From Solemya velum gill symbiont (lineage in GTDB: Bacteria > Pseudomonadota > Gammaproteobacteria > Chromatiales > Chromatiaceae): a stretch of DNA of 64,000 nucleotides. The position numbers were made by a program, and so were the translations under genes. The notes beneath the pieces are model-generated. The model did not search any database and was not told the DNA's origin. It saw nothing but the letters and a program-made list of their open reading frames with translations. The stretch covers positions 868,001 to 932,000 of the forward strand of contig NZ_JRAA01000001.1 in NCBI RefSeq assembly GCF_000787395.1. The letters run 5' to 3'. This document shows, piece by piece, positions 6,196 through 36,075 of this stretch. How positions within the stretch are numbered: position 1 is the first letter of the stretch; every line of letters begins with the position of its first letter.

Positions 6196-6494
6196 ATATT
6201 TATTTTATCAGCAGACTCTGCAAAGCGTATTGAGATTATAGGTGAACGTTGATTATTAAAATGACTGATACCGGCCAATAGCGGTCATTGATTCAACTGT
6301 GCTATTTTTTTGTGTGACTTTCTGGCACATTGAGCAGTGACTATGCTTCTTTTTACCGTGTTAAGAAAAGGGAAAGCGCAGCAAGCAATTACTTGTTCCG
6401 TTGGTAAATATTTACTCATATGCCTACAAACCTTTTGTCCGGGATTCAAGCCACTGAGAACCTGTTTACATATGATATTGCTCCATTAATAGTT

Positions 6495-6500
6495 TATAAT
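6495..6500 (+). promoter_or_regulatory. -10 element of the riboswitch/porin transcript
   Basis: A perfect TATAAT lies about 8-12 nt before the aptamer. The nearest good -35 match, TTTACA at 6465-6470, is 24 nt away, too far for a standard sigma-70 spacing, so the -35 is weak or an activator is used. The rest of the 469-bp gap (6196-6464) holds no ORF or hairpin that I can support. Confidence 0.5.
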
Positions 6501-6507
6501 TTGCTTT

Positions 6508-6596
6508 ATGGTTAAGGGCAAACCCGCTCGAAAGACGGGGACGCAAAGCCACCGGCCTGTGATGAAATGATTATTTGGTAGCGGGGTTACCCAATT
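6508..6596 (+). ncRNA. Cyclic di-GMP-I (GEMM-I) riboswitch aptamer
   Basis: The sequence carries the conserved blocks of the Vc2-type c-di-GMP aptamer in order: AGGGCAAACC (6514-6523), a stem capped by CGAAAG (6529-6534), GGGACGCAAAGCC (6537-6549), ACCGGCCT (6551-6558), and GGTAGCGGGGTTACC (6578-6592). This class binds the second messenger c-di-GMP. It lies in the 5' leader of the porin gene, so the porin is very probably under c-di-GMP control. There is a single aptamer. The match is by eye to the known motif; a covariance-model search was not possible here. Confidence 0.93.
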
Positions 6597-6629
6597 GCAG
6601 TGAAACCTTGACTCAAGGCTCACTACAAT
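6594..6629 (+). promoter_or_regulatory. Expression-platform hairpin of the riboswitch
   Basis: Immediately after the aptamer, AGTGA (6599-6603) pairs with TCACT (6620-6624), enclosing CCTTG-ACT-CAAGG (6606-6618). No T-run follows, so this is not a classical intrinsic terminator. Control through Rho, or through access to the ribosome site GGGGAA (6651-6656), is more likely. This is inference from folding by eye. Confidence 0.5.
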
Positions 6630-6664
6630 TAAGGCTATTAATGCATTACAGGGGAAATAATACA

Positions 6665-7843
6665 ATGAAAAAGAGTCTACTTGCTGCCATGATCGCTGCT
6701 GTAGTTGCCGCTCCGGCAGCAAATGCAAGCGTTACAATTTATGGCAAGATCCATGCCTCCATCGATATGATTGACTATAGTCACAGTCGCGATACTATTG
6801 ACGATATTGATGCGTGGTACGTTGTCAGTCGAGCATCCCGCATCGGTTTCAAAGGCACCGAAGACCTCGGTAACGGCATGAGCCTCATCTGGAAAGCAGA
6901 AACTGGTTACGACATCACTGATGGGGATGCATGGGGTGGTGGCCGTAACGCCTATATAGGCCTTGCTGGCGACTGGGGTACTTTCCTCTACGGTAACCAC
7001 GATACCCCGCTGAAAATTTCTACCGGAAAACTCGATCTCTTCGGAGATCAGCTAGGTGATTACAACTGGTCAGCAGGGCCCGAGGGCGCACTGTTGGGTC
7101 CGGGATTTCATGATGTCCGTGCAGAAAATGCGATTGCCTACATTTCTCCGAACATGAACGGATTGACCTTTGCGGCGGCCATCGTTCCGGGTGAAGGACT
7201 GGACTACGATGTCCACGGGGGTGGTCCTGACTATACTGGTCCCCACACACAGAATGGTCTTGCCGATTCCTATTCTGTCGCTGCCATGTACAGCAACAAC
7301 GGGCTTCATCTCTCTGCCGGCTATGAGAACCTGATGGCAGGAACCTATTACGATACGCTCTTTAGTAAGATCAGTCCGTCACTCTCTTCTTTGGAACTCA
7401 TACTTAGAGAGCATGACGATGACATGCAGGTTTGGCGTGTGGGTGCTGGCTATACCATGAATGCTTTTACTGTTAATTTCGTTTATGAGAACCAGCAGTT
7501 TGATGATGTCGGAATCTGGAGAAGAAATTACAGTGTGATTAATCCACGTTCAGAATATGAGGCCGACGCTTGGCAGGTTTCCGCTGCTTATGATTTCGGC
7601 AACAATCGTATCAAGCTCGCTTACGGTGAGAACGATGCAGACGTTGTCACTGAAAGCGGTCCGATCAGCGGTAAGTCCCAGCACTGGACATTAGGGCTAG
7701 ATCACAAACTGAGTAAACGTACCATGGCATACGCTCAGTATGCTCACGCTGAATCCGATGCAGATTATGAAGCCGACGGACGAGATTATAGTATGGACGA
7801 GGAGACCTCCGGTTTTAGTATTGGCTTAGTCCATAGTTTCTAA
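6665..7843 (+). CDS. Outer-membrane porin (Gram-negative trimeric type)
   Basis: The start is set at ATG 6665, after GGGGAA (6651-6656), giving a 392-residue protein with a clear signal peptide (MKKSLLAAMIAAVVAAPAAN, cleavage after NAS or close by). The mature protein opens VTIYGKIHASIDM, the usual first strand of Porin_4/OmpC-like general porins. It continues as alternating amphipathic beta segments (RIGFKGTEDLGNGMSLIWKA, RNAYIGLAGDWGTFLYG) and ends in GLVHSF with the C-terminal phenylalanine needed for BamA-mediated insertion. It should form a 16-stranded channel for small solutes. The c-di-GMP aptamer in its leader is the notable part: few porins are known to be controlled this way. A strong terminator follows. 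Confidence 0.93.
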   Translation: MKKSLLAAMIAAVVAAPAANASVTIYGKIHASIDMIDYSHSRDTIDDIDAWYVVSRASRIGFKGTEDLGNGMSLIWKAETGYDITDGDAWGGGRNAYIGLAGDWGTFLYGNHDTPLKISTGKLDLFGDQLGDYNWSAGPEGALLGPGFHDVRAENAIAYISPNMNGLTFAAAIVPGEGLDYDVHGGGPDYTGPHTQNGLADSYSVAAMYSNNGLHLSAGYENLMAGTYYDTLFSKISPSLSSLELILREHDDDMQVWRVGAGYTMNAFTVNFVYENQQFDDVGIWRRNYSVINPRSEYEADAWQVSAAYDFGNNRIKLAYGENDADVVTESGPISGKSQHWTLGLDHKLSKRTMAYAQYAHAESDADYEADGRDYSMDEETSGFSIGLVHSF

Positions 7844-27385: not shown

Positions 27386-28011
27386 TTAAACGACTCCGAA
27401 AATAATGCGCTGAAAGACTCACTGGCACGACGAACATCGTCCTGCCCGAATACACCGTGGATAACGGCGAGCAGATCAGCACCTGCTTCAATTAATGTAG
27501 CGCCATTCTGCGCAGTTATGCCGCCGATGGCAACCACCGGCACCTCTAAATGCTGTTTTGCGCTGCGCAACAACTCGATCTCTGCCTTCGCTGCCTGCGG
27601 CTTGGTCTGCGAGGGAAAAAAACGCCCAAAGGCGACATACGAGGCCCCACGTGCTTCCATTTCCAGTGCGCATTCAAGATTGTTGTAGCAGGATATGCCG
27701 ATTATCGCCTCGTCACCCAGCAGCTCACGCGCCTCTTCATAGGGTATATCATCACGCCCGAGATGGACGCCATCGGCACCGCTCTCCCGTGCCAGCTCGA
27801 CGTCGTCATTGACCAGCAACAGCGCCTCTGCCGAATGACACAGCGGGCGCAACAGCTCAAGTTCAGTGAGAGCATTATCACGGTCTGCCCGCTTGTTGCG
27901 ATACTGCACTACTGTGGCACCGCCCAGTAGCGCCGCTTCCACATCGTAGAAGAGATCCTGCGACAAACCCGGATCCGTAATTACGTAGAGCCCACGTCTG
28001 ATTTCCATCAC
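27382..28011 (-). CDS. thiE: Thiamine-phosphate synthase
   Basis: A 209-residue TIM-barrel enzyme joining the pyrimidine and thiazole moieties of thiamine. Motifs: [82 protein letters not shown] and [10 protein letters not shown]. It overlaps its neighbours by 4 nt on each side. No TPP riboswitch was seen before the unit. Confidence 0.97.
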
Positions 28012-28823
28012 TGTGCCCCCCCTGCCCGCCCCGGAATCAACTGTCCGCTACCAATGCGATAGCCCCGCTGCAGGGCATCATAGGCAAAAGCCTGTGCCAG
28101 GCCGAGCGCCATTTTCAATGGCATTCCACGTGCAATAAATGCAGCAATAGCTGATGCCAGCGTACAGCCGGAGCCATGGTATTCACCCGGCAATCGCTGC
28201 CATTGCCACGACTCACTCTCAGCATCATTAGAGTGCCAGCTATGCACGATTTCATCACCATCCTCGTGCGAACCCGTCAGCAGAAGATTATTGACTCCTG
28301 TTGCGAGTAAATTATCAGCTGCCCGCAACAGGTCATCAGAACCACCAAGACGGCGTGCCTCAATCGTATTTGGTGTAAGCAAAAAACAGCGCGGCAAGAG
28401 CGCCGATACAATTGCCTCTTGCAAAGCCTTGCTGCCAGCCTCACCACCACCACCTGCGGCAAGTACAGGATCAAACACCACCGGCACACCTTCTAGTTGA
28501 TCAAGCATGGTCATTACCGCAGCCAGCGCATCAAATGAGCCGAGCATACCGATCTTGACTACATCGATAGTGATATCTGCATGAATGGCATCAAACTGGC
28601 GCAGCATGATGGATGGATCAACAGGTTCAAGCGCCGACATGGAAGATGTGTCCTGCACTGTCAGTGCAGTAATCAGCGTCAATGGGTGAGAACCGAGTGC
28701 CGAGATCGTCTCAATATCCGCAGAGATACCTGCACCACCGCCAGCATCATGACCACCTATCGCAAGCACAGTTGCTCGTCGCGCTGCTGTGATCTCTTCA
28801 CTCTGTTGACTCATATCCTGCAT
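28008..28823 (-). CDS. thiD: Hydroxymethylpyrimidine/phosphomethylpyrimidine kinase
   Basis: A 271-residue ribokinase-fold kinase that phosphorylates HMP twice for thiamine synthesis. It begins with a short variable tail, then VLAIGGHDAGGGAGISADIETISALG, FDPVLAAGGGG, LLTPNTIEARRL and the anion-hole motif GEYHGSGCTLASAIAAFIARG. It heads the thiD-thiE-hemL unit. Just upstream the accessory stretch begins. Confidence 0.96.
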   Translation of the reverse strand: MQDMSQQSEEITAARRATVLAIGGHDAGGGAGISADIETISALGSHPLTLITALTVQDTSSMSALEPVDPSIMLRQFDAIHADITIDVVKIGMLGSFDALAAVMTMLDQLEGVPVVFDPVLAAGGGGEAGSKALQEAIVSALLPRCFLLTPNTIEARRLGGSDDLLRAADNLLATGVNNLLLTGSHEDGDEIVHSWHSNDAESESWQWQRLPGEYHGSGCTLASAIAAFIARGMPLKMALGLAQAFAYDALQRGYRIGSGQLIPGRAGGAQ

Positions 28824-29035
28824 GCCGGGCTTTTCCTTTGTCTTAATTAGACATCATGGAAGCCCATGAGGAAATTTTCAAGGCGCGGGAGGCCATTTAG
28901 GCTCAGGAGGACCTTACTGAAGTGTCGAAGGCCCAGCCTACCCCGGAATATTCTTTCTGGCACGTCCGGGCTTTATCCTCAATATGAAAAACAAATTATA
29001 TGCAGTAGAGTTAAGGTATTGCTTCAAAACGTAAT
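28824..29035. other. Intergenic stretch with no supported gene
   Basis: From the thiD start to the first interspersed repeat I see no convincing gene. A short plus-strand frame (28856 onward, MEAHEEIFKAREAI, then a TAG at about 28898 and a further open run) could be a decayed fragment, but it matches nothing I know. The alternative frame 28866-29255 is arginine-rich in its first half and looks like a shadow joined to the remnant described next. Confidence 0.4.
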
Positions 29036-29105
29036 GGGGGCCAGTGGAAAAATACTCAAGGCTCCATTAAAGCATGATGAAAATAGTTTTTACTCTGACC
29101 CCAAA
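29036..29105 (+). repeat. Interspersed repeat, copy 1
   Basis: A ~70-bp unit starting GGGGCCAGTGG and ending ACTCTGACCCC, so its tips are imperfect inverted repeats (GGGNCAG/CTGACCC). Its last 28 bp (29078-29105) are identical to 29996-30023. The GGGTCAG...CTGACCC tips resemble sequences that often flank REP-type (RAYT/Y1 transposase) elements; no such transposase is in the window. Confidence 0.75.
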
Positions 29106-29255
29106 TATCACACTTCCCCTGTTAGAAATGTAATATTTAATGCTGGTAAAACCAGCCGCATTAATGTCGCTGATTTCATGTCTGACTTAGCCGTAAAATC
29201 AGAGCTATGGAATGAATGGAAAGGAAAAATGCCAGTCATCTACGATCGTGTATAA
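29106..29255 (+). pseudogene. 3' remnant of an NmrA-like NAD(P)-binding protein gene
   Basis: The frame encodes NVIFNAGKTSRINVADFMSDL followed by VKSELWNEWKGKMPVIYDRV and a stop. The TSRxxVADFM element and the short conserved tail are typical of the C-terminal end of NmrA/SDR-like NAD(P)H-binding proteins. The N-terminal nucleotide-binding part is missing; repeat copy 1 is immediately upstream and runs into the frame. It is most likely a gene truncated by the repeat or by a deletion next to it. Confidence 0.55.
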
Positions 29256-29302
29256 CAAGGCACCCGCATAGCGGGCGGGACGTAATAACAAAAAGTTGAC
29301 TT

Positions 29303-29935
29303 ATGGAAATACTAAGATACAAGCGTAAACATGTTACTTCTTCATCAATTGTGGCATTTGTGTTGTTACTTGTTTTAATGACTCAGGCTCATGGCGATGT
29401 GGACAAGTGCATCAAGCTCTATAATGAAGCCAGCTATCAGCAGGCATTTGAACCCTGTAACAGTGCAGCTGAAAACGGCCATGCTCAGGCACAAACCATA
29501 CTGGGCGAGTTTTACGATGACCAAGGGGAAGTGGAAAAGGCTCGCTTCTGGTGGGAACAGGCGTCCAGCTCTGGCTACTTACCGGCGCGTAATCTGCTTG
29601 CGCAGAAACATTATTATGGCGGCTCTGTATTAGGAAAAGAAAAAGGCTGGCAGCAAAGTTACAGCAAAGCCATGTCGATATGGAAGGAAGATGCTTTTAT
29701 GGGTGTTGCAACGGCACAGTTCATGGTGGGTGAAATGTACCTGACAGGAAAAGGCATGGAGCCAAACCTGGCAGAAGGCTGGGCCTGGATGAAACTGGCT
29801 AGTAATAATGGTTATAAGCTTGCCGATGACCTTCTATATGAATTTAAGCATCAAATTACGGCGGCTCAACATGAGGCAGCAGTTTTAAAATTGAAGGAAT
29901 ATGAAAAAATCATAAAAGGCAGGAATTCAGAATAA
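29303..29935 (+). CDS. Secreted Sel1-repeat protein
   Basis: A 210-residue protein with a signal peptide (hydrophobic SSSIVAFVLLLVLMTQAHG). At least two Sel1-like repeats follow (AAENGHAQAQTILGEFYDDQGEVEKARFWWEQA, and ATAQFMVGEMYLTGKGMEPNLAEGWAWMKLASNNGY). Sel1 solenoids bind protein partners. It stands alone between copies 1 and 2 of the interspersed repeat, like a small cassette. A partner cannot be named. Confidence 0.85.
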   Translation: MEILRYKRKHVTSSSIVAFVLLLVLMTQAHGDVDKCIKLYNEASYQQAFEPCNSAAENGHAQAQTILGEFYDDQGEVEKARFWWEQASSSGYLPARNLLAQKHYYGGSVLGKEKGWQQSYSKAMSIWKEDAFMGVATAQFMVGEMYLTGKGMEPNLAEGWAWMKLASNNGYKLADDLLYEFKHQITAAQHEAAVLKLKEYEKIIKGRNSE

Positions 29936-29945
29936 TTGGATAATT

Positions 29946-30023
29946 AGGGTCAGTGCAATAATGCCCGCACCACTCAAGACGCCAATATAGTAAGGTGAAA
30001 ATAGTTTTTACTCTGACCCCAAA
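29946..30023 (+). repeat. Interspersed repeat, copy 2
   Basis: A 78-bp unit beginning AGGGTCAGTGCAATAATGCC and ending in ACTCTGACCCCAAA. The last 28 bp are identical to copy 1. It lies 10 nt after the Sel1 gene and 48 nt before the cation-efflux gene. Confidence 0.8.
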
Positions 30024-30071
30024 CGTTCCAAACATTTCCAAATATCTTGGGTTGCAATAGAGGTTCTTCGA

Positions 30072-30686
30072 ATGAGTGGTTGTTGTGACAATGAATGTTC
30101 TATAGATGCTCTTCGTGCAAAGCAACGAGGAACTCTTCTGATTGTTCTTGGTATCAACGCAGTCATGTTTCTGGTTATTGTGAGTGCAGCATTGTATAGC
30201 CGTTCAACAGCACTGCTTGCCGATAGTTTTGACAACATGGGAGATGCCCTGACATACGGACTTAGCCTGTATGTCGTTTCGCGAAGCAATAGCGCTAAAG
30301 CCAAGGTAGCCTTATTTAAAGGCTTACTTATTTTCTTGGCAGCAATCATTGTGTTGTCTCAAGTCATTTACAGGTTATACATTCCAAGCACCCCTGTTTT
30401 TGAAGTCATGGGTGCATTTAGTATTATCAGTCTTGCTGCAAATTCCGTTTGTTTCTATTTACTTTGGAAGCACCGCGACGAAGATGTCAATATGAGTTCA
30501 GTGTGGGAATGCTCACGCAATGACATCGCATCCAATCTTTCGGTGCTGATTGCAGCTGGAGCAGTTTGGCTAACCGGCACAGGGTGGCCCGATATCGTAG
30601 TCGCGTTAGGTCTTGCTTTTCTTTTATTGCGTTCGGCGTATCGTGTAATTTCTTCGGCATGGGAAGAACTTCATGTTGCAACCTAA
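30072..30686 (+). CDS. Short cation-diffusion-facilitator-type transporter
   Basis: A 204-residue membrane protein of the cation efflux family with about six helices and no C-terminal cytoplasmic domain (classical CDFs are about 300 residues). LLADSFDNMGDALTYG carries the first metal-site aspartates. The second site reads CSRND where canonical members have HxxxD. An MSGCCDNECSIDAL N-terminus adds three cysteines that could bind metal. It probably exports a divalent metal; which one cannot be told. It is isolated between repeat copies 2 and 3. Confidence 0.85.
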   Translation: MSGCCDNECSIDALRAKQRGTLLIVLGINAVMFLVIVSAALYSRSTALLADSFDNMGDALTYGLSLYVVSRSNSAKAKVALFKGLLIFLAAIIVLSQVIYRLYIPSTPVFEVMGAFSIISLAANSVCFYLLWKHRDEDVNMSSVWECSRNDIASNLSVLIAAGAVWLTGTGWPDIVVALGLAFLLLRSAYRVISSAWEELHVAT

Positions 30687-30710
30687 CAATGCGCTCGTTC
30701 AGATGCGTTA

Positions 30711-30787
30711 TTGGGATCAGAGAAAAACACCTGCGACTTAATGCACCATTGTAGTATGGTGGAAACAGTTTTCACTCTCACACCGCA
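30711..30787 (+). repeat. Interspersed repeat, copy 3 (degenerate)
   Basis: It aligns with copy 2 along its length: GGATCAG at the left and TGGTGGAAACAGTTTTCACT toward the right. About 21 of the last 28 positions match copies 1 and 2. It lies 24 nt after the cation-efflux gene and 43 nt before the SRPBCC gene, so each of two genes is followed by a copy. Confidence 0.65.
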
Positions 30788-30830
30788 TGTTCCGTTTGAT
30801 GGCAAACAGATGCCATAGGGATTGTTAGAT

Positions 30831-31274
30831 ATGGTCGATATCATTCATCGAGTAGGGATTGCAGCTTCGGCTGACGAAGTTTACAGCGCCCTGACAACCA
30901 ATGAAGGACTGGCCAAGTGGTGGACAACTGATACCACTGGTGCAGGGAATGTTGGTTCAATTATCAAGTTCAGGTTTGATGGTGGCGGGCCGGATTTCGA
31001 AGTTGCAGAGCTTCAACCAGATTCAGTAGTACGCTGGAAACACTCAGGTGAAATGCCTGGTCCATGGATGGGTACAGAAGTATCATTCCATTTGTCTCGT
31101 GGTGATAATCAAACGTACGTACTCTTCTCACATTCCAATTGGAAAGAGCCATCAGATTTTATGGGGCACTGCAGTACCAAATGGGCTGTATTCTTGCTAA
31201 GCCTTAAAGAGGCGTTAGAGAAGGGAGAAGGCAAACCCTTTCCTAATGACATTCATATTGATCACGATGAATAA
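30831..31274 (+). CDS. SRPBCC (AHSA1-like) domain protein
   Basis: Start chosen at ATG 30831, since the longer frame begins at a TTG three codons earlier with no better ribosome site. The 147-residue product fits the START/Bet v1-like AHSA1 group: HRVGIAASADEVYSALTTNEGLAKWWT, GSIIKFRF, VVRWKHSGE and the C-terminal SLKEALEKGEG helix. Such proteins hold hydrophobic ligands or act as chaperone cofactors. No partner is adjacent. Confidence 0.85.
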   Translation: MVDIIHRVGIAASADEVYSALTTNEGLAKWWTTDTTGAGNVGSIIKFRFDGGGPDFEVAELQPDSVVRWKHSGEMPGPWMGTEVSFHLSRGDNQTYVLFSHSNWKEPSDFMGHCSTKWAVFLLSLKEALEKGEGKPFPNDIHIDHDE

Positions 31275-31390
31275 ACTGTCATATCCCTACTTCTTCAACT
31301 ACAACCCTTTGAGGGAGACGGACTTACTGCCGATACGGGCCACCTGTTCTCTTTGACCTTATGCGTATTTGATTATGGAGTACCGACTCA

Positions 31391-31639
31391 ATGACAAATG
31401 TAGAAACAATTACTGAATTTCTGGGCTGGTGTACCGTTTTGAACCTTGGGATTCTCACATTCTCAACCGTCATGCTTATAACAAATGTAGGCGACTGGCC
31501 GAAAGGAATTCACAGCAAGCTATTTGGAGTCCAGAAAGAAGGTCTGGATGCGATGTACTTTAATTTCCTGGCCAACTACAAATTGGCAATATTTATTTTT
31601 AACTTGGTTCCTTATTTAGCACTAAAGATAATGGAATGA
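31391..31639 (+). CDS. DUF6868-type small membrane protein
   Basis: An 82-residue protein with two membrane helices (TEFLGWCTVLNLGILTFSTVMLI and YKLAIFIFNLVPYLALKIM) around a short loop. It matches in layout the small DUF6868 family; no role is known. It is followed 6 nt later by the DoxX gene, probably as one transcript. Confidence 0.75.
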   Translation: MTNVETITEFLGWCTVLNLGILTFSTVMLITNVGDWPKGIHSKLFGVQKEGLDAMYFNFLANYKLAIFIFNLVPYLALKIME

Positions 31640-31645
31640 TTCTCA

Positions 31646-32005
31646 ATGAATATCCGCATCGTTACCTACATTCTCGTTTTAGTATTCGCCCTTTCGGGTG
31701 GTGCAAAGCTCGCGGCTTTGCCTTTTGAGGTTGAAGCGTTCGCGCGTTGGGGATACACGCCCAGTTTCATGTATCTCACGGGCATACTTGAAGTTGCAGG
31801 CGCAGCTGGCTTGCTCATTCCGCGGTTGTCCGCACTTGCGTCTGCCTGTCTTGCTATCCTGATGATCGGAGCTATCGGCACTCACGCCATTCACAGCGAA
31901 TGGCCAATGTTCGCAGTCGCCGTTGCTATTTTCTGTTTTGCCACGTGGCGTGGCTGGTTTGGGCGTTGCGATATCGCCCAGCTCTTTTCCGGATCTCGTG
32001 CGTAA
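31646..32005 (+). CDS. DoxX family membrane protein
   Basis: A 119-residue protein with four helices and the DoxX pattern SGGAKLAALPFEVEAFARWGYTPSFMYLTGILEVAGAAGLLIPRL. DoxX-like proteins are associated with quinone-linked redox reactions and oxidative stress, but most are uncharacterised. It lies directly behind the DUF6868 gene. Confidence 0.85.
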   Translation: MNIRIVTYILVLVFALSGGAKLAALPFEVEAFARWGYTPSFMYLTGILEVAGAAGLLIPRLSALASACLAILMIGAIGTHAIHSEWPMFAVAVAIFCFATWRGWFGRCDIAQLFSGSRA

Positions 32006-32189
32006 CGCGTCATTGAGAAACGTCATCCATATATTTTAGCCAGAGCAACTGCGGTATAATTGCATCTGACCCAGAAGTGGTTACTCGACACAACAGGTAA
32101 GTTCCTCTCCCCCGCACACTGATTTGCAGAGGATGCAGAGAAATTTGTGCTAACCGGTTTTTTCATACACTCAACATCAAGATTCTATT

Positions 32190-32696
32190 ATGTCCACCTT
32201 TCCATCTGAACAAAGCTGTTACTTTTGCAGAGTCTCTAACGGCGAAACTGATCCCTTTATTTTTGAGAACAGATCATTCCTCAGTGTCTTTGATACCAAC
32301 CCGGTTAACCCGGGTCATGCATTGATCATCCCAAGAAGGCATGTCGACTCAATCTTTCATCTGAATGAAATGGAAGAGGCGGATTATTTTGATGCGATCA
32401 AGGGAGTCAAAAGCGTTATCGAAACAACTGACATGACAGATCTCTATGAAAACATGCTTCACAGGGATTACCTGAAAGACCTCCCCAAGGGCCACATAGA
32501 AACAGTGTTACAACTGCCTTTTCTGGGAGACAAGCCTAATGCATACACTGTCGGCAATAACGATGGCAGAGAAGCAGGAAGAAGCATAGACCATTTACAT
32601 GTCATTCTTTTGCCGCGTTATAAAGGAGATGTGGAAAACCCAAGAGGTGGTATACGTAACGTGATTCCGTGCAGGGCTAATTACCAAAGAAGGTAA
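32190..32696 (+). CDS. HIT-family nucleotide-binding protein with altered triad
   Basis: A 168-residue protein with CYFCRVSNGE, the HIT core NPGHALIIPRRHVDSIFHLNEMEEADYF and the triad region SIDHLHVILLPRYKGD. The family motif is HxHxH; here it reads H135-L-H137-V-I139, so the last histidine is replaced by isoleucine while the nucleophilic middle one remains. Members hydrolyse or transfer nucleotide monophosphates. A possible -10 (TATAAT, 32055-32060) lies in the 184-bp gap upstream. The gene is single. Confidence 0.85.
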   Translation: MSTFPSEQSCYFCRVSNGETDPFIFENRSFLSVFDTNPVNPGHALIIPRRHVDSIFHLNEMEEADYFDAIKGVKSVIETTDMTDLYENMLHRDYLKDLPKGHIETVLQLPFLGDKPNAYTVGNNDGREAGRSIDHLHVILLPRYKGDVENPRGGIRNVIPCRANYQRR

Positions 32697-32721
32697 ATGT
32701 AGAAACTGCTTCAGGAAATAA

Positions 32722-33384
32722 TCAGAGCGCCATTGCCAGCATGGCATCAATATCGCTGATGATAATTTCACCGCGATTAGTAACGAGCAGACCCTGCTTT
32801 TGCCAACGAGACAAATGACGGGAAACAATTTCTCTGGCTGTTCCAAGCTCTATGGCCAGTTCAGATTGTTTGATTTTTACAACCTGATCATTACCCATTT
32901 TTTCAATCAGCAATCCGGCCAGGCGATTCTCCACCGGAACAAATGCATGATTGGCAAATCGTTCTATAACCTGCTTAAAGCGGGAACCAATATTATTGAA
33001 GATCCAGTGCTGAAATTCACTGGAGCTATCCATCCACTGTTGAAACTGTTCCTTTTCCGTCCAGCAAAGCCATCCATCAGTCTCCGCAGACGTGATGTAG
33101 CTAAAGTTCTCATCATTGATCAGATTAATCAGTGAGTGAATACATAACTGACCCGGTTCAATCCGGTAAAGCAACAGACTCCGTCCCTGATCATTTTGTA
33201 GTTGCACCCGAATCGCCCCTTGGCCTAACAAGACAAAACGATTACAAGGCTGACCCGGCTTGAATAAAGTATCACCCGCCTTGAAAGCCTGCTTTTTCCA
33301 ATTGTGGTCATCTAACCCGGGAAACTTGGCAGCAGCAGGAAAGACGTCAGATAGAATGTGTTGTTCGGCCTGTTTTAGTTCCAT
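32722..33384 (-). CDS. Crp/Fnr-family transcriptional regulator
   Basis: A 220-residue regulator with an N-terminal cyclic-nucleotide-binding-type beta barrel (FKAGDTLFKPGQPCNRFVLLGQGAIRVQL...GRSLLLYRIEPGQLC) and a C-terminal winged helix (VVKIKQSELAIELGTAREIVSRHLSRWQKQGLL). It lacks an Fnr-type N-terminal cysteine cluster, and its cAMP-contact residues are not obvious, so the effector is unknown. It lies downstream of the small secreted peptide gene on the same strand. TGTGA-type palindromes near that gene make local regulation plausible. Confidence 0.92.
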   Translation of the reverse strand: MELKQAEQHILSDVFPAAAKFPGLDDHNWKKQAFKAGDTLFKPGQPCNRFVLLGQGAIRVQLQNDQGRSLLLYRIEPGQLCIHSLINLINDENFSYITSAETDGWLCWTEKEQFQQWMDSSSEFQHWIFNNIGSRFKQVIERFANHAFVPVENRLAGLLIEKMGNDQVVKIKQSELAIELGTAREIVSRHLSRWQKQGLLVTNRGEIIISDIDAMLAMAL

Positions 33385-33419
33385 TCGGTTTTATCGCTAC
33401 ACTGCAAAGTGCGGCGATC

Positions 33420-33448
33420 AGGATAATGACTGGATTGTTCATTATCCT
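33420..33448. promoter_or_regulatory. Inverted repeat upstream of the Crp/Fnr gene
   Basis: AGGATAATGA and TCATTATCCT form a perfect 10-bp inverted repeat with a 9-nt spacer, 36-64 nt before the regulator start. A second, CATTGAT (33456-33462) with ATCAATG (33472-33478), lies just upstream. Either could be an operator or an mRNA hairpin. Confidence 0.45.
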
Positions 33449-33496
33449 ATCAAATCATTGATAAGTACTTGATCAATGTCAGAATAACAGAACCTA

Positions 33497-33517
33497 CCTC
33501 ACCCGGCTTGGGTGAGG
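33497..33517. terminator. Strong hairpin between the peptide and regulator genes
   Basis: CCTCACCC-GGCTT-GGGTGAGG is a perfect 8-bp stem. A smaller stem (CCCG-AAAC-CGGG, 33542-33553) followed on the minus strand by five T residues precedes it, close to the peptide stop. Together they probably end or attenuate the peptide transcript before the regulator gene. Confidence 0.5.
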
Positions 33518-33566
33518 GCTGTATCAAGTGTGATGTAAAAACCCGAAACCGGGATTCTATGAATTA

Positions 33567-33818
33567 TCAGATCTCGAAACCTTCAGGCCAAGCCATACCG
33601 TCTGCAACAGTGACGCTTTCCTCTTGGGCCACATTAGATGTCGTGCTGAAGCCATATGGCCAATCCATACCGTCAGACACTTCAGTTTCAGTACTCTCTA
33701 CTGCTGAATTTGCAGTGAAGCCATTGGGCCAATCCATACCGTCAGCCAATTCTGAAGCATGTAGTTGTGAAGCACTAACCAGTGCCACTAAAGCCAGTGA
33801 TGTAACCAATGTTTTCAT
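33567..33818 (-). CDS. Secreted 83-residue peptide with three DGMxWPxGF repeats
   Basis: The start is set at MKTLVTSLALVALVSASQ (33818); the longer frame to 33890 adds a hydrophilic leader that would hide the signal peptide. After a likely cleavage at LHA/S (residue 21) the mature ~62 residues contain three copies of one motif: DGMDWPNGF (26-34), DGMDWPYGF (49-57) and DGMAWPEGF (73-81), spaced 23 and 24 residues. The spacers are Ser/Thr/Val/Glu-rich and differ from each other. There are no cysteines. I recognise no family. It could be a structural repeat protein, a precursor of short released peptides, or a binding protein. No modifying enzyme or dedicated transporter is adjacent. Confidence 0.8.
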   Translation of the reverse strand: MKTLVTSLALVALVSASQLHASELADGMDWPNGFTANSAVESTETEVSDGMDWPYGFSTTSNVAQEESVTVADGMAWPEGFEI

Positions 33819-33849
33819 GATCTTTATCTCATTAATTTCGGATGCCTGC

Positions 33850-33881
33850 AGTATAGTGAGCAGCAAATAAAAGTCATGTGA
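33850..33881 (-). promoter_or_regulatory. Predicted sigma-70 promoter of the repeat-peptide gene
   Basis: On the minus strand the -10 TATACT (33855-33850) is preceded, at a 16-bp spacing, by ATGACT (33877-33872) as a -35. This puts the transcript start near 33843 and leaves a leader of about 25 nt. The -35 is weak, as expected for an activated promoter. Confidence 0.5.
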
Positions 33882-33920
33882 CTTAGTCACTTAGAAAAGA
33901 AGTTATGTGATATGGTCACA
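33877..33920. promoter_or_regulatory. Pair of Crp/Fnr-like palindromes
   Basis: TGTGA-CTTAG-TCACT (33877-33891) and TGTGA-TATGG-TCACA (33906-33920) are two inverted repeats with a 5-bp centre, 29 bp apart. The first is centred at about -41 from the predicted start of the peptide transcript, the classical position for a Crp/Fnr activator contacting polymerase. The centre is one base shorter than the E. coli CRP site (N6). They lie in the divergent gap shared with the VF530 gene. Confidence 0.55.
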
Positions 33921-33963
33921 CCTGTCAGCCTTCAGCCATTACATACATTGAGCGGGTAGCAAT

Positions 33964-34410
33964 ATGAATAATGAGATTAATTACACGAATAATCCGCTAC
34001 ACGGCGTGGGGCTGAAACAACTACTCACAGAAATCGTTGATCATTACGGTTTTGAAATTTTATTTGCCTACTTGAACATCAATTGTTTCAAAACAAGGCC
34101 AAGCATAGAATCCAGCATGAAGTTTCTGAAGAAAACGGATTGGGCGCGTGAAAAAGTTGAAAACTTTTATTTGTACCAGTTTAAAAACTTACCCCGGGCC
34201 TCTTTTGAGCAGTATTCACTACCTCCAAGGGAACGAATCATTCCGGATGATCAATCACCCGGCGAGCCAGCCAAGCTAAGCCTGGAAGATGCTGAACACT
34301 TGCAGGAAAAACGAGAAGCCAGGTCAACTGAACGAGATCATGGAAAAAGAGATCACATGAAAAAGGATATTGATCCCTGGGCAAATCGGAAAAGAAAATC
34401 AAAATACTGA
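33964..34410 (+). CDS. VF530 (DUF2132) family DNA-binding protein with long tail
   Basis: A 148-residue protein. Residues 8-75 match the VF530 fold: [62 protein letters not shown]. Family members are about 75-90 residues; here about 70 extra residues form a charged tail ending [14 protein letters not shown]530 from Vibrio was described as a DNA-binding fold. It diverges from the repeat-peptide gene. Confidence 0.85.
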
Positions 34411-34473
34411 AGCATCATTCACTCCACCACTGCCCGTTAACACAAAATAATCTCTCACAAAGGAATTGAGTCA

Positions 34474-35133
34474 ATGTCAAAACTGACTTTAGTCATCGGA
34501 AACAAAAACTACTCATCCTGCTCGTTAAGACCCTGGGTTTTTATGAAGCATTACCAGGTTGTTTTTGAAGAGAAGAGAATAGCGCTCTTTACCGATACAA
34601 CAACGGATGAGCTATCAATATACAACTCAGATTTTAAGGTTCCGATATTGAAAGAGAATGAGTTTGAGGTTTGGGATTCACTATCAATTCTTGAATATGT
34701 TTCTGAGCAATATCTATCCGGTCAGGGCTGGCCTGCTGATGCAAATGCTCGAGCGGTTGCCCGGTCAATCAGCACCGAAATGCATTCCAGCTTTTTCAAT
34801 GTGAGAAATGAACTGCCAATGAACTGTCGCAAGGAGTTCAATGGTATCAAGCTGTCCGAAGGCGCGGTAAGTGAGATAGAACGAATAAAGGAACTATGGA
34901 GACGATGCCGAAGTGAATATGGCAGCGGGGGCGAATGGCTGTTTGGAAAATACTCCATCGCTGATGCCATGTTTGCCCCCGTCGCCCTTAGATTCAATGG
35001 CTACAATATTCAACTGGATGGAATTGAAAAGGAATATGTGAATAGCGTGTTAGCGCATCCGGCCATTGTCGAGTGGATAGAGGCGGCCAAGCTGGAAACT
35101 GAAGTGATTACGGAAGATGAAATTGATGTTTAG
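34474..35133 (+). CDS. Glutathione S-transferase family protein
   Basis: A 219-residue protein with the thioredoxin-fold N-terminus LTLVIGNKNYSSCSLRPWVFMKH, where the Ser-Ser-Cys-Ser segment holds the catalytic serine region, then FKVPILKENEFEVWDSLSILEYV (glutathione-binding cis-Pro and SI motif). A helical C-domain with YSIADAMFAPVALRFNGY follows. The substrate is unknown. Codon use is AT-richer than the flanking core genes. Confidence 0.9.
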   Translation: MSKLTLVIGNKNYSSCSLRPWVFMKHYQVVFEEKRIALFTDTTTDELSIYNSDFKVPILKENEFEVWDSLSILEYVSEQYLSGQGWPADANARAVARSISTEMHSSFFNVRNELPMNCRKEFNGIKLSEGAVSEIERIKELWRRCRSEYGSGGEWLFGKYSIADAMFAPVALRFNGYNIQLDGIEKEYVNSVLAHPAIVEWIEAAKLETEVITEDEIDV

Positions 35134-35168
35134 CCAACAAACTTCAAGAACCATGAGGGAAATCAAAC

Positions 35169-35477
35169 ATGCTTGAGTTGAGACCAACATGCGAACACTG
35201 CAACAAGGCATTGCCACCGAATTCAACGGAAGCAATGATTTGCTCATTTGAGTGCACCTTCTGTAAGGGTTGTGCAGATGACGTTCTGGAAAACGTTTGC
35301 CCCAATTGCGGTGGTGGATTCACTCCAAGGCCAATAAGACCCAAGAATAATTTAAAGGATGAGAATTTTCTCGGTGAAAGTCCTGCCACGGACAAGATCA
35401 CATATAAACCAGTAGACACAAAGGAACATCAAGCTTTTGCAAAAGAGATCAAAACGATCCCACCTGAAGAACGATAG
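35169..35477 (+). CDS. DUF1272 zinc-ribbon-like protein
   Basis: A 102-residue protein beginning MLELRPTCEHCNKALPPNS. Cysteine pairs CEHC, CSFECTFCKGC and CPNCGGGF suggest a bound zinc. This matches the DUF1272 family, here with about 30 extra C-terminal residues. No role is known. It follows the GST gene by 35 nt. Confidence 0.87.
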   Translation: MLELRPTCEHCNKALPPNSTEAMICSFECTFCKGCADDVLENVCPNCGGGFTPRPIRPKNNLKDENFLGESPATDKITYKPVDTKEHQAFAKEIKTIPPEER

Positions 35478-35533
35478 TTTCATCCATACATAACCAGCTT
35501 CTCGCACATACATAACTTACAAGCTCACAACAA

Positions 35534-36075
35534 ATGACCCCAAGCGACATCATCGACTACTGGTATTCTGACAGGATAAAAAAACCTGGTTTTCCTCCAC
35601 CCCGGAACTGGACCTGGAAATTAAGGCCCGTTACGAGAAAACCTGGCATCTGGCTAAAAACGATGCACTTGATAGCTGGAGAGAATCAGCTGAGGGCTGC
35701 CTGGCTTTAGTAATCATTCTGGATCAATTCCCGCTCAATATGTTCAGAGGTGATCCACGCAGTTTTGAAACAGAAAGTAAAGCCATTGAGATCTCAAAAC
35801 TTGCTATCAATAAAGGCTTCGACAAGGAGCTAACACAAGAAGCCCTGCCCTTTCTTATCATGCCTTTAATGCACAGTGAAAATATTCAAGACCAGGAGTT
35901 ATCCGTCAGGCTCTTCAAACAGCATAACCTGGCAGACAATCTCCGCTTTGCCGAGCATCATCGTGACTTAATCAGGAAATTTGGCCGCTTCCCGCATAGA
36001 AATAAAACTCTTGGTCGGGAAAGCACCGAAGAAGAAAAGCAGTATCTACAATCTAAAAATGCTTTTACGGGCTGA
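35534..36075 (+). pseudogene. DUF924 family gene with a frameshift
   Basis: ATG 35534 starts MTPSDIIDYWYSDRIKK in one frame. After a run of seven A (35578-35584) the reading frame is lost; adding one A restores TWFSSTPELDLEIKARYEKTW and then ALVIILDQFPLNMFRGDPRSF, the DUF924 core, through to the stop at 36075. The combined product is about 181 residues, a normal family length. The shift could be real, a phase-variable homopolymer, or a sequencing error. Confidence 0.8.

What the first reader, a model, noticed from the sequence alone, without database searches (positions are those of the whole stretch)
33567..33818. Undescribed secreted peptide with three DGMxWPxGF motifs
The sequence directly shows an 83-residue protein with a signal peptide and three near-identical nonapeptides (DGMDWPNGF, DGMDWPYGF, DGMAWPEGF) at residues 26, 49 and 73. 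The spacers are unlike each other, so the motif itself is under selection or was recently triplicated. The DNA of copies 2 and 3 is identical over 19 bases around GGCCAATCCATACCGTC. I know of no named family with this motif. The repeat arrangement would suit a precursor from which short peptides are cut, a repetitive binding protein, or a host or neighbour-directed factor. No YcaO, radical-SAM, lanthionine or dedicated protease/transporter gene lies nearby, which argues against a standard RiPP.
Basis: partly seen in the sequence, partly recalled or inferred. Interest (0 to 1): 0.85.

Follow-up and report, generated by a model that had tools for sequence, protein, structure and literature searches.

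The report
Regulated secreted protein with triple motif
A clam-gill sulfur bacterium carries a gene for a small exported protein with the same nine-residue motif three times, whose promoter holds two binding sites of a kind that, in other bacteria, goes with relatives of its neighbour-encoded regulator; the protein family is undescribed and its job is unknown.

Summary
On the minus strand, 33818-33567, lies an 83-aa protein with a Sec-type signal peptide and the motifs DGMDWPNGF, DGMDWPYGF and DGMAWPEGF. It is a real, conserved gene. The Solemya elarraichensis symbiont has all three motifs (66% identity; dN/dS 0.24 overall, 0.07 in the motifs). A third copy, frameshifted in its assembly, lies in a gammaproteobacterium of another family. 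Pfam, NCBIfam, PHROGs and PDB have no match. In all three genomes a Crp/Fnr gene lies just downstream on the same strand.

New here: the peptide promoter carries two conserved 13-bp palindromes, GTGAC-N3-GTCAC, at about -70 and -41 (22 nt before the -10 TATACT). The same palindrome lies beside 14 of 26 homologues of this Crp/Fnr protein in other bacteria (1.2 expected). In 13 of these it precedes a small YgaP-like membrane protein, with a -10 at the same offset in 12. The neighbouring Crp/Fnr protein is therefore most likely the direct class II activator of the peptide gene: a known kind of module with a new exported output. A sulfide or redox signal is plausible but inferred. The molecular role is open; no standard RiPP.

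The parts
33567..33818 (-). Gene for the 83-aa triple-motif exported protein (P0001)
   Evidence: Translation; intact homologue 66% identical in S. elarraichensis symbiont, dN/dS 0.24
33756..33818 (-). Signal-peptide-like N-terminus, residues 1-21 (MKTLVTSLALVALVSASQLHA), no lipobox cysteine
   Evidence: Read from sequence; no dedicated signal-peptide predictor was available
33717..33743 (-). Motif copy 1, DGMDWPNGF
33648..33674 (-). Motif copy 2, DGMDWPYGF
33576..33602 (-). Motif copy 3, DGMAWPEGF, two residues before the C-terminus
33850..33855 (-). Predicted -10 element TATACT of the peptide promoter, present in all three homologous loci
33878..33890 (-). Operator B, GTGACTAAGTCAC, centred at about -41 (22 nt before the -10)
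33907..33919 (-). Operator A, GTGACCATATCAC, centred at about -70
33537..33556 (-). Short intrinsic-terminator-like hairpin (CCCG-GTTT-CGGG-TTTTT) after the peptide gene; counterparts in the other two loci
   Evidence: Folds; sequences; not listed by the stricter scan
32722..33384 (-). Crp/Fnr-family regulator gene, 220 aa, with recognition helix AREIVSRHL
   Evidence: Pfam; PDB relatives; alignment
33469..33482 (-). Possible FNR-like box CTGACATTGATCAA upstream of the regulator gene, by hand count at -41.5 from GATAAT (33441-33446); conserved in S. elarraichensis but not clearly in the third genome
   Evidence: Read from sequence

Best explanation
This is a two-gene unit: a Crp/Fnr-family activator and its dedicated target, a small acidic exported protein. 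The regulator dimer binds GTGAC-N3-GTCAC palindromes centred at about -41 and -70 and activates the peptide gene from a class II promoter; a terminator after the gene suggests a single-gene transcript. The protein goes through the Sec route, loses its signal peptide and becomes a roughly 62-residue, net -13, probably disordered chain carrying three evenly spaced DGMDWPxGF modules. Most likely these act together as a multivalent ligand or scaffold for a partner in the periplasm or outside the cell, under conditions the regulator senses; by analogy with its relatives these are probably redox or reduced-sulfur conditions. Shown computationally: gene, motif conservation, operators, promoter geometry, link between operator and regulator subfamily. 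Inferred: actual binding, activation, export, the signal, the multivalent function.
For: Gene under purifying selection, motifs most strongly. Crp/Fnr gene adjacent downstream, same strand, in three genomes of two families, with different outer neighbours. Both palindromes, their spacing and the -10 conserved in all three. The operator was derived from this promoter and then tested on 26 loci of homologous Crp/Fnr genes: GTGA-N5-TCAC 14 times, 1.2 expected and at most 3 in 100 randomised sets, other spacings 0-4. Thirteen of these precede a small YgaP-like ORF (5 of 5 tested hit PF11127), and a -10-like nAnnnT lies exactly 22 nt away in 12 of 13, against at most 1 at any other offset. Recognition helix R-E-x-x-S-R resembles CRP's, fitting GTGA half-sites. 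In this genome the ten strict palindromes were all examined: apart from the one here they lie within or appear to lie within coding sequence. Sulfur/redox hint: homologues lie beside SoxYZ, a rhodanese-fused disulfide oxidoreductase and cytochrome bd, and a DUF2892 (YgaP-like) gene rose about 10-fold during H2S oxidation in Azospira suillum (PMC5358917).
Against: No expression, binding or secretion data. The regulator gene is frameshifted in the S. elarraichensis draft and, with the peptide gene, in the third genome; assembly error or decay cannot be told apart here. In the third genome the -10 lies 21, not 22, nt from the operator. The second cysteine of the subfamily's conserved C-x-LTT-x-C stretch is missing in this regulator, so its signal may differ. 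The single-sequence structure model is uninformative (mean pLDDT 55.6). The multivalent role rests on anatomy alone.
Confidence: 0.6

Rival explanations
1. A precursor that is cut after export to release three copies of a DGMDWPxGF nonapeptide acting as a signal, an antagonist of neighbours, or a host-directed peptide.
For: Motifs nearly identical, spacers variable; each motif is preceded by a small residue (A/S) in the Solemya copies and the last ends two residues before the C-terminus.
Against: No Lys/Arg in the mature protein, hence no dibasic sites; no dedicated protease or transporter among the neighbours examined, the nearby Lon-like ORF being presumably cytosolic; spacers also partly conserved between the two Solemya symbionts.
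Confidence: 0.2
2. A ribosomally made, enzymatically modified peptide (RiPP), for example with Trp-centred cross-links.
For: Repeated Trp-Pro core.
Against: Sec-type signal peptide instead of a cytosolic leader; no radical-SAM, YcaO, lanthionine or ABC-exporter hit among the ten neighbouring proteins scanned.
Confidence: 0.04
3. The operators belong to another transcription factor and the adjacent Crp/Fnr gene is a bystander.
For: The five-base spacing differs from the usual CRP spacing of six (established knowledge); no regulator-target pair was shown by experiment.
Against: The same palindrome is strongly enriched beside homologues of this regulator in ten other genera.
Confidence: 0.12
4. 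A chance or decaying open reading frame without function.
For: Very narrow distribution: three genomes among roughly a thousand sampled; frameshifted in the third.
Against: dN/dS 0.24, motifs 0.07; conserved promoter, start region and terminator.
Confidence: 0.04

Closest known systems
YgaP-like_TM (PF11127, DUF2892) genes behind a GTGAC-N3-GTCAC promoter next to a Crp/Fnr gene
   Same: Same operator, same 22-nt distance to the -10, same adjacency to a homologous regulator, small output gene
   Different: Output there is a small membrane protein; here an exported acidic protein with no visible sequence relation to it
Crp/Fnr regulators of the 3dv8 kind
   Same: Best solved relative, E 2.9e-15; shared recognition helix
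   Different: Only about 30-42% identity to most relatives found; second cysteine of the C-x-LTT-x-C stretch lost; no known ligand
WGxxGxxG family protein (NF041742)
   Same: Weak similarity over residues 1-53
   Different: E 0.06, 13.9 bits against a cut-off of 35: not a member

Membership tests
Crp/Fnr family (neighbouring regulator) | cNMP-binding-like domain plus Crp-type HTH | tested here: met
   PF00027 44.2 bits and PF13545 47.9 bits, both above cut-off
cAMP receptor protein CRP proper | NCBIfam equivalog score for CRP | tested here: not met
   42.3 bits against 266
Class II Crp-type promoter | Operator centred near -41, overlapping the -35 region | tested here: met
   22 nt from operator to -10; same in 12 of 13 promoters from other genera; the transcription start itself is not measured
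Sec-exported protein | Cleavable N-terminal signal peptide | tested here: inconclusive
   Judged by eye from sequence; no predictor available
RiPP precursor | Adjacent maturation enzyme | tested here: not met
   None among ten neighbours scanned; the rest of the genome was not searched
Multi-copy peptide precursor | Conserved cleavage sites flanking each copy | tested here: inconclusive
   No dibasic sites; only a weak A/S before each motif
Any Pfam, NCBIfam or PHROGs family (peptide) | Score over curated cut-off or E below 0.001 | tested here: not met
   Best E values 0.047, 0.06 and 0.2

The most novel reading that the evidence does not exclude
The protein is the founding member of a new class of exported multi-motif signal, switched on by a sulfur- or redox-sensing Crp/Fnr regulator and used by sulfur-oxidising bacteria, symbionts included, to act on neighbours or on the host.
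Probability: 0.12. Interest if true: 0.8.

Novelty: new variant of a known kind. Interest (0 to 1): 0.5.

Why it matters
It gives an unannotated exported protein family a concrete, testable regulator and promoter, and it proposes an operator (GTGAC-N3-GTCAC at -41) for a widespread Crp/Fnr subfamily for which I found no published site in the papers searched. If the regulator senses sulfide or redox state, the module would link such sensing to an exported product in a chemosynthetic symbiont.

Tried and rejected
Weak CBM_2, PDGLE, WGxxGxxG, glycanase and PapC similarities (E 0.047 to 0.35) were dismissed as chance. Weak peptide hits in G008, G178 and G509 were looked at and rejected: none carries the motif. 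Five viral contigs with one motif-like stretch lack the triple arrangement. No match in plasmids or with the alignment in viral contigs. Further regulon members in this genome were sought by scanning for the palindrome: the other sites are single and lie in coding sequence, with three or four not clearly assignable. The genome's own YgaP-like genes carry no such operator just upstream. The structure model is not usable, so no fold search was run.

Full report
The thing itself. Minus-strand bases 33818-33567 encode MKTLVTSLALVALVSASQLHASELADGMDWPNGFTANSAVESTETEVSDGMDWPYGFSTTSNVAQEESVTVADGMAWPEGFEI. The mature chain has no Cys, Lys, Arg or His and a net charge of -13. In 2000 shuffles no pair of 9-mers came near the observed likeness.

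Where it comes from. The same-genus genome holding a homologue is the Solemya elarraichensis gill symbiont, and the window's 2.70-Mb genome matches in size the published Solemya velum symbiont (PMC4287430). That the window is from the S. velum symbiont is an inference from size and kinship, not a stated fact.

Relatives. Searches with the protein or its alignment covered relatives, class, order and phylum samples with overlaps. Only three genomes hold the protein: this one, S. elarraichensis, and G090, an unnamed bacterium of the same class but another family. The S. elarraichensis copy is intact with the same motif spacing. The G090 copy has motif 1 and part of motif 2 in one frame and motif 3 in another; its Crp/Fnr gene is also frameshifted. 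For alignment A2 I wrote the G090 copy across the frameshift with X at the unreadable positions.

Selection. Between the two Solemya symbionts dN/dS is 0.24 for the gene, 0.07 for the motifs, 0.35 for the spacers and 0.41 for the signal region. The synonymous distance in the motifs is near saturation and the gene is short, so these ratios are rough.

Surroundings. Downstream on the same strand is a Crp/Fnr gene, in all three genomes. In the window the order is HIT, crp, peptide, VF530; in S. elarraichensis the HIT gene lies on the other side of the pair; in G090 the pair lies by a TonB and a TonB-receptor gene. The pair thus stays together while its neighbours change.

Promoter. Aligning the upstream DNA of the three loci shows two conserved palindromes, GTGACCATRTCAC and GTGACTMAGTCAC, a conserved TATACT, and a similar stretch before the start codon. 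Operator B ends 22 nt before the -10 in both Solemya loci and 21 nt in G090. In the window the full operator-plus-promoter pattern occurs without mismatch only here. A short hairpin followed by T follows the gene in all three; the tool's terminator scan, with a stricter stem rule, did not list the one in the window.

Independent test of the operator. I took the palindrome from this promoter and asked whether it occurs near other homologues of the regulator. In 26 loci of homologues with roughly 30-42% identity, GTGA-N5-TCAC occurs 14 times in 87 kb, against 1.2 expected; other spacings occur 0 to 4 times. Thirteen lie downstream of the regulator gene, mostly right at its 3' end, and precede a roughly 60-76-aa ORF (one is written as 95 aa from an earlier start codon); the five scanned are all PF11127, YgaP-like, and the other eight look alike by eye. 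At offset 22 from the site, 12 of 13 have nAnnnT, against at most one at any other offset. The 13 come from ten genera, so they are not all independent. This is the main reason for assigning the window's palindromes to its Crp/Fnr neighbour.

How it probably works. The regulator's recognition helix, AREIVSRHL, has the Arg, Glu and Arg spacing of CRP, which by established knowledge reads GTGA. A dimer at -41 would contact RNA polymerase as a class II activator, helped by a second dimer at -70. The signal is unknown. Neighbours of the homologues include SoxYZ, a rhodanese-fused pyridine nucleotide-disulfide oxidoreductase and cytochrome bd, and a DUF2892 transcript rose about 10-fold under H2S oxidation in Azospira suillum (PMC5358917); whether that gene has this operator was not tested. 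A sulfide or redox cue is therefore a lead only.

What the protein does. Three conserved aromatic modules on a presumably flexible acidic chain fit a multivalent ligand or scaffold. A cut precursor is possible but lacks clear cleavage sites. Nothing here shows a host-directed role. I put the regulatory unit at about 0.75 and the multivalent reading at about 0.5 within it; the confidence of 0.6 is for the statement as worded, with its inferred steps marked.

Novelty. The exported protein is an undescribed family; the control circuit is a known kind of module with a different output. Hence 'new variant of a known kind'.

Noticed in passing
L032 (S. elarraichensis) 6307-6968: The Crp/Fnr gene is split by a frameshift in this draft assembly although its predicted target's promoter is fully conserved; error or decay not resolved.
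   Followed up: partly
L030, L129, L133 (G090): A repeated coding-like stretch (CFGHQAQANSKNLTRPFMP...) recurs at several places of the G090 genome, once fused to an unrelated ORF; looks like a dispersed repeat.
   Followed up: no
window 28000-36000: Lower G+C (0.44-0.47 against about 0.53 around it) over the stretch that holds the pair and several small genes whose order differs in S. elarraichensis; possibly an accessory segment.
   Followed up: no
L057 (G000 contig C6, 7.8 kb): ORFs on this short contig do not look bacterial; it may be host DNA in the assembly.
   Followed up: no
window 33430-33485: Upstream of the Crp/Fnr gene an FNR-like box sits at -41.5 of a GATAAT by hand count, conserved in S. 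elarraichensis; the regulator may itself be under oxygen or NO control.
   Followed up: partly
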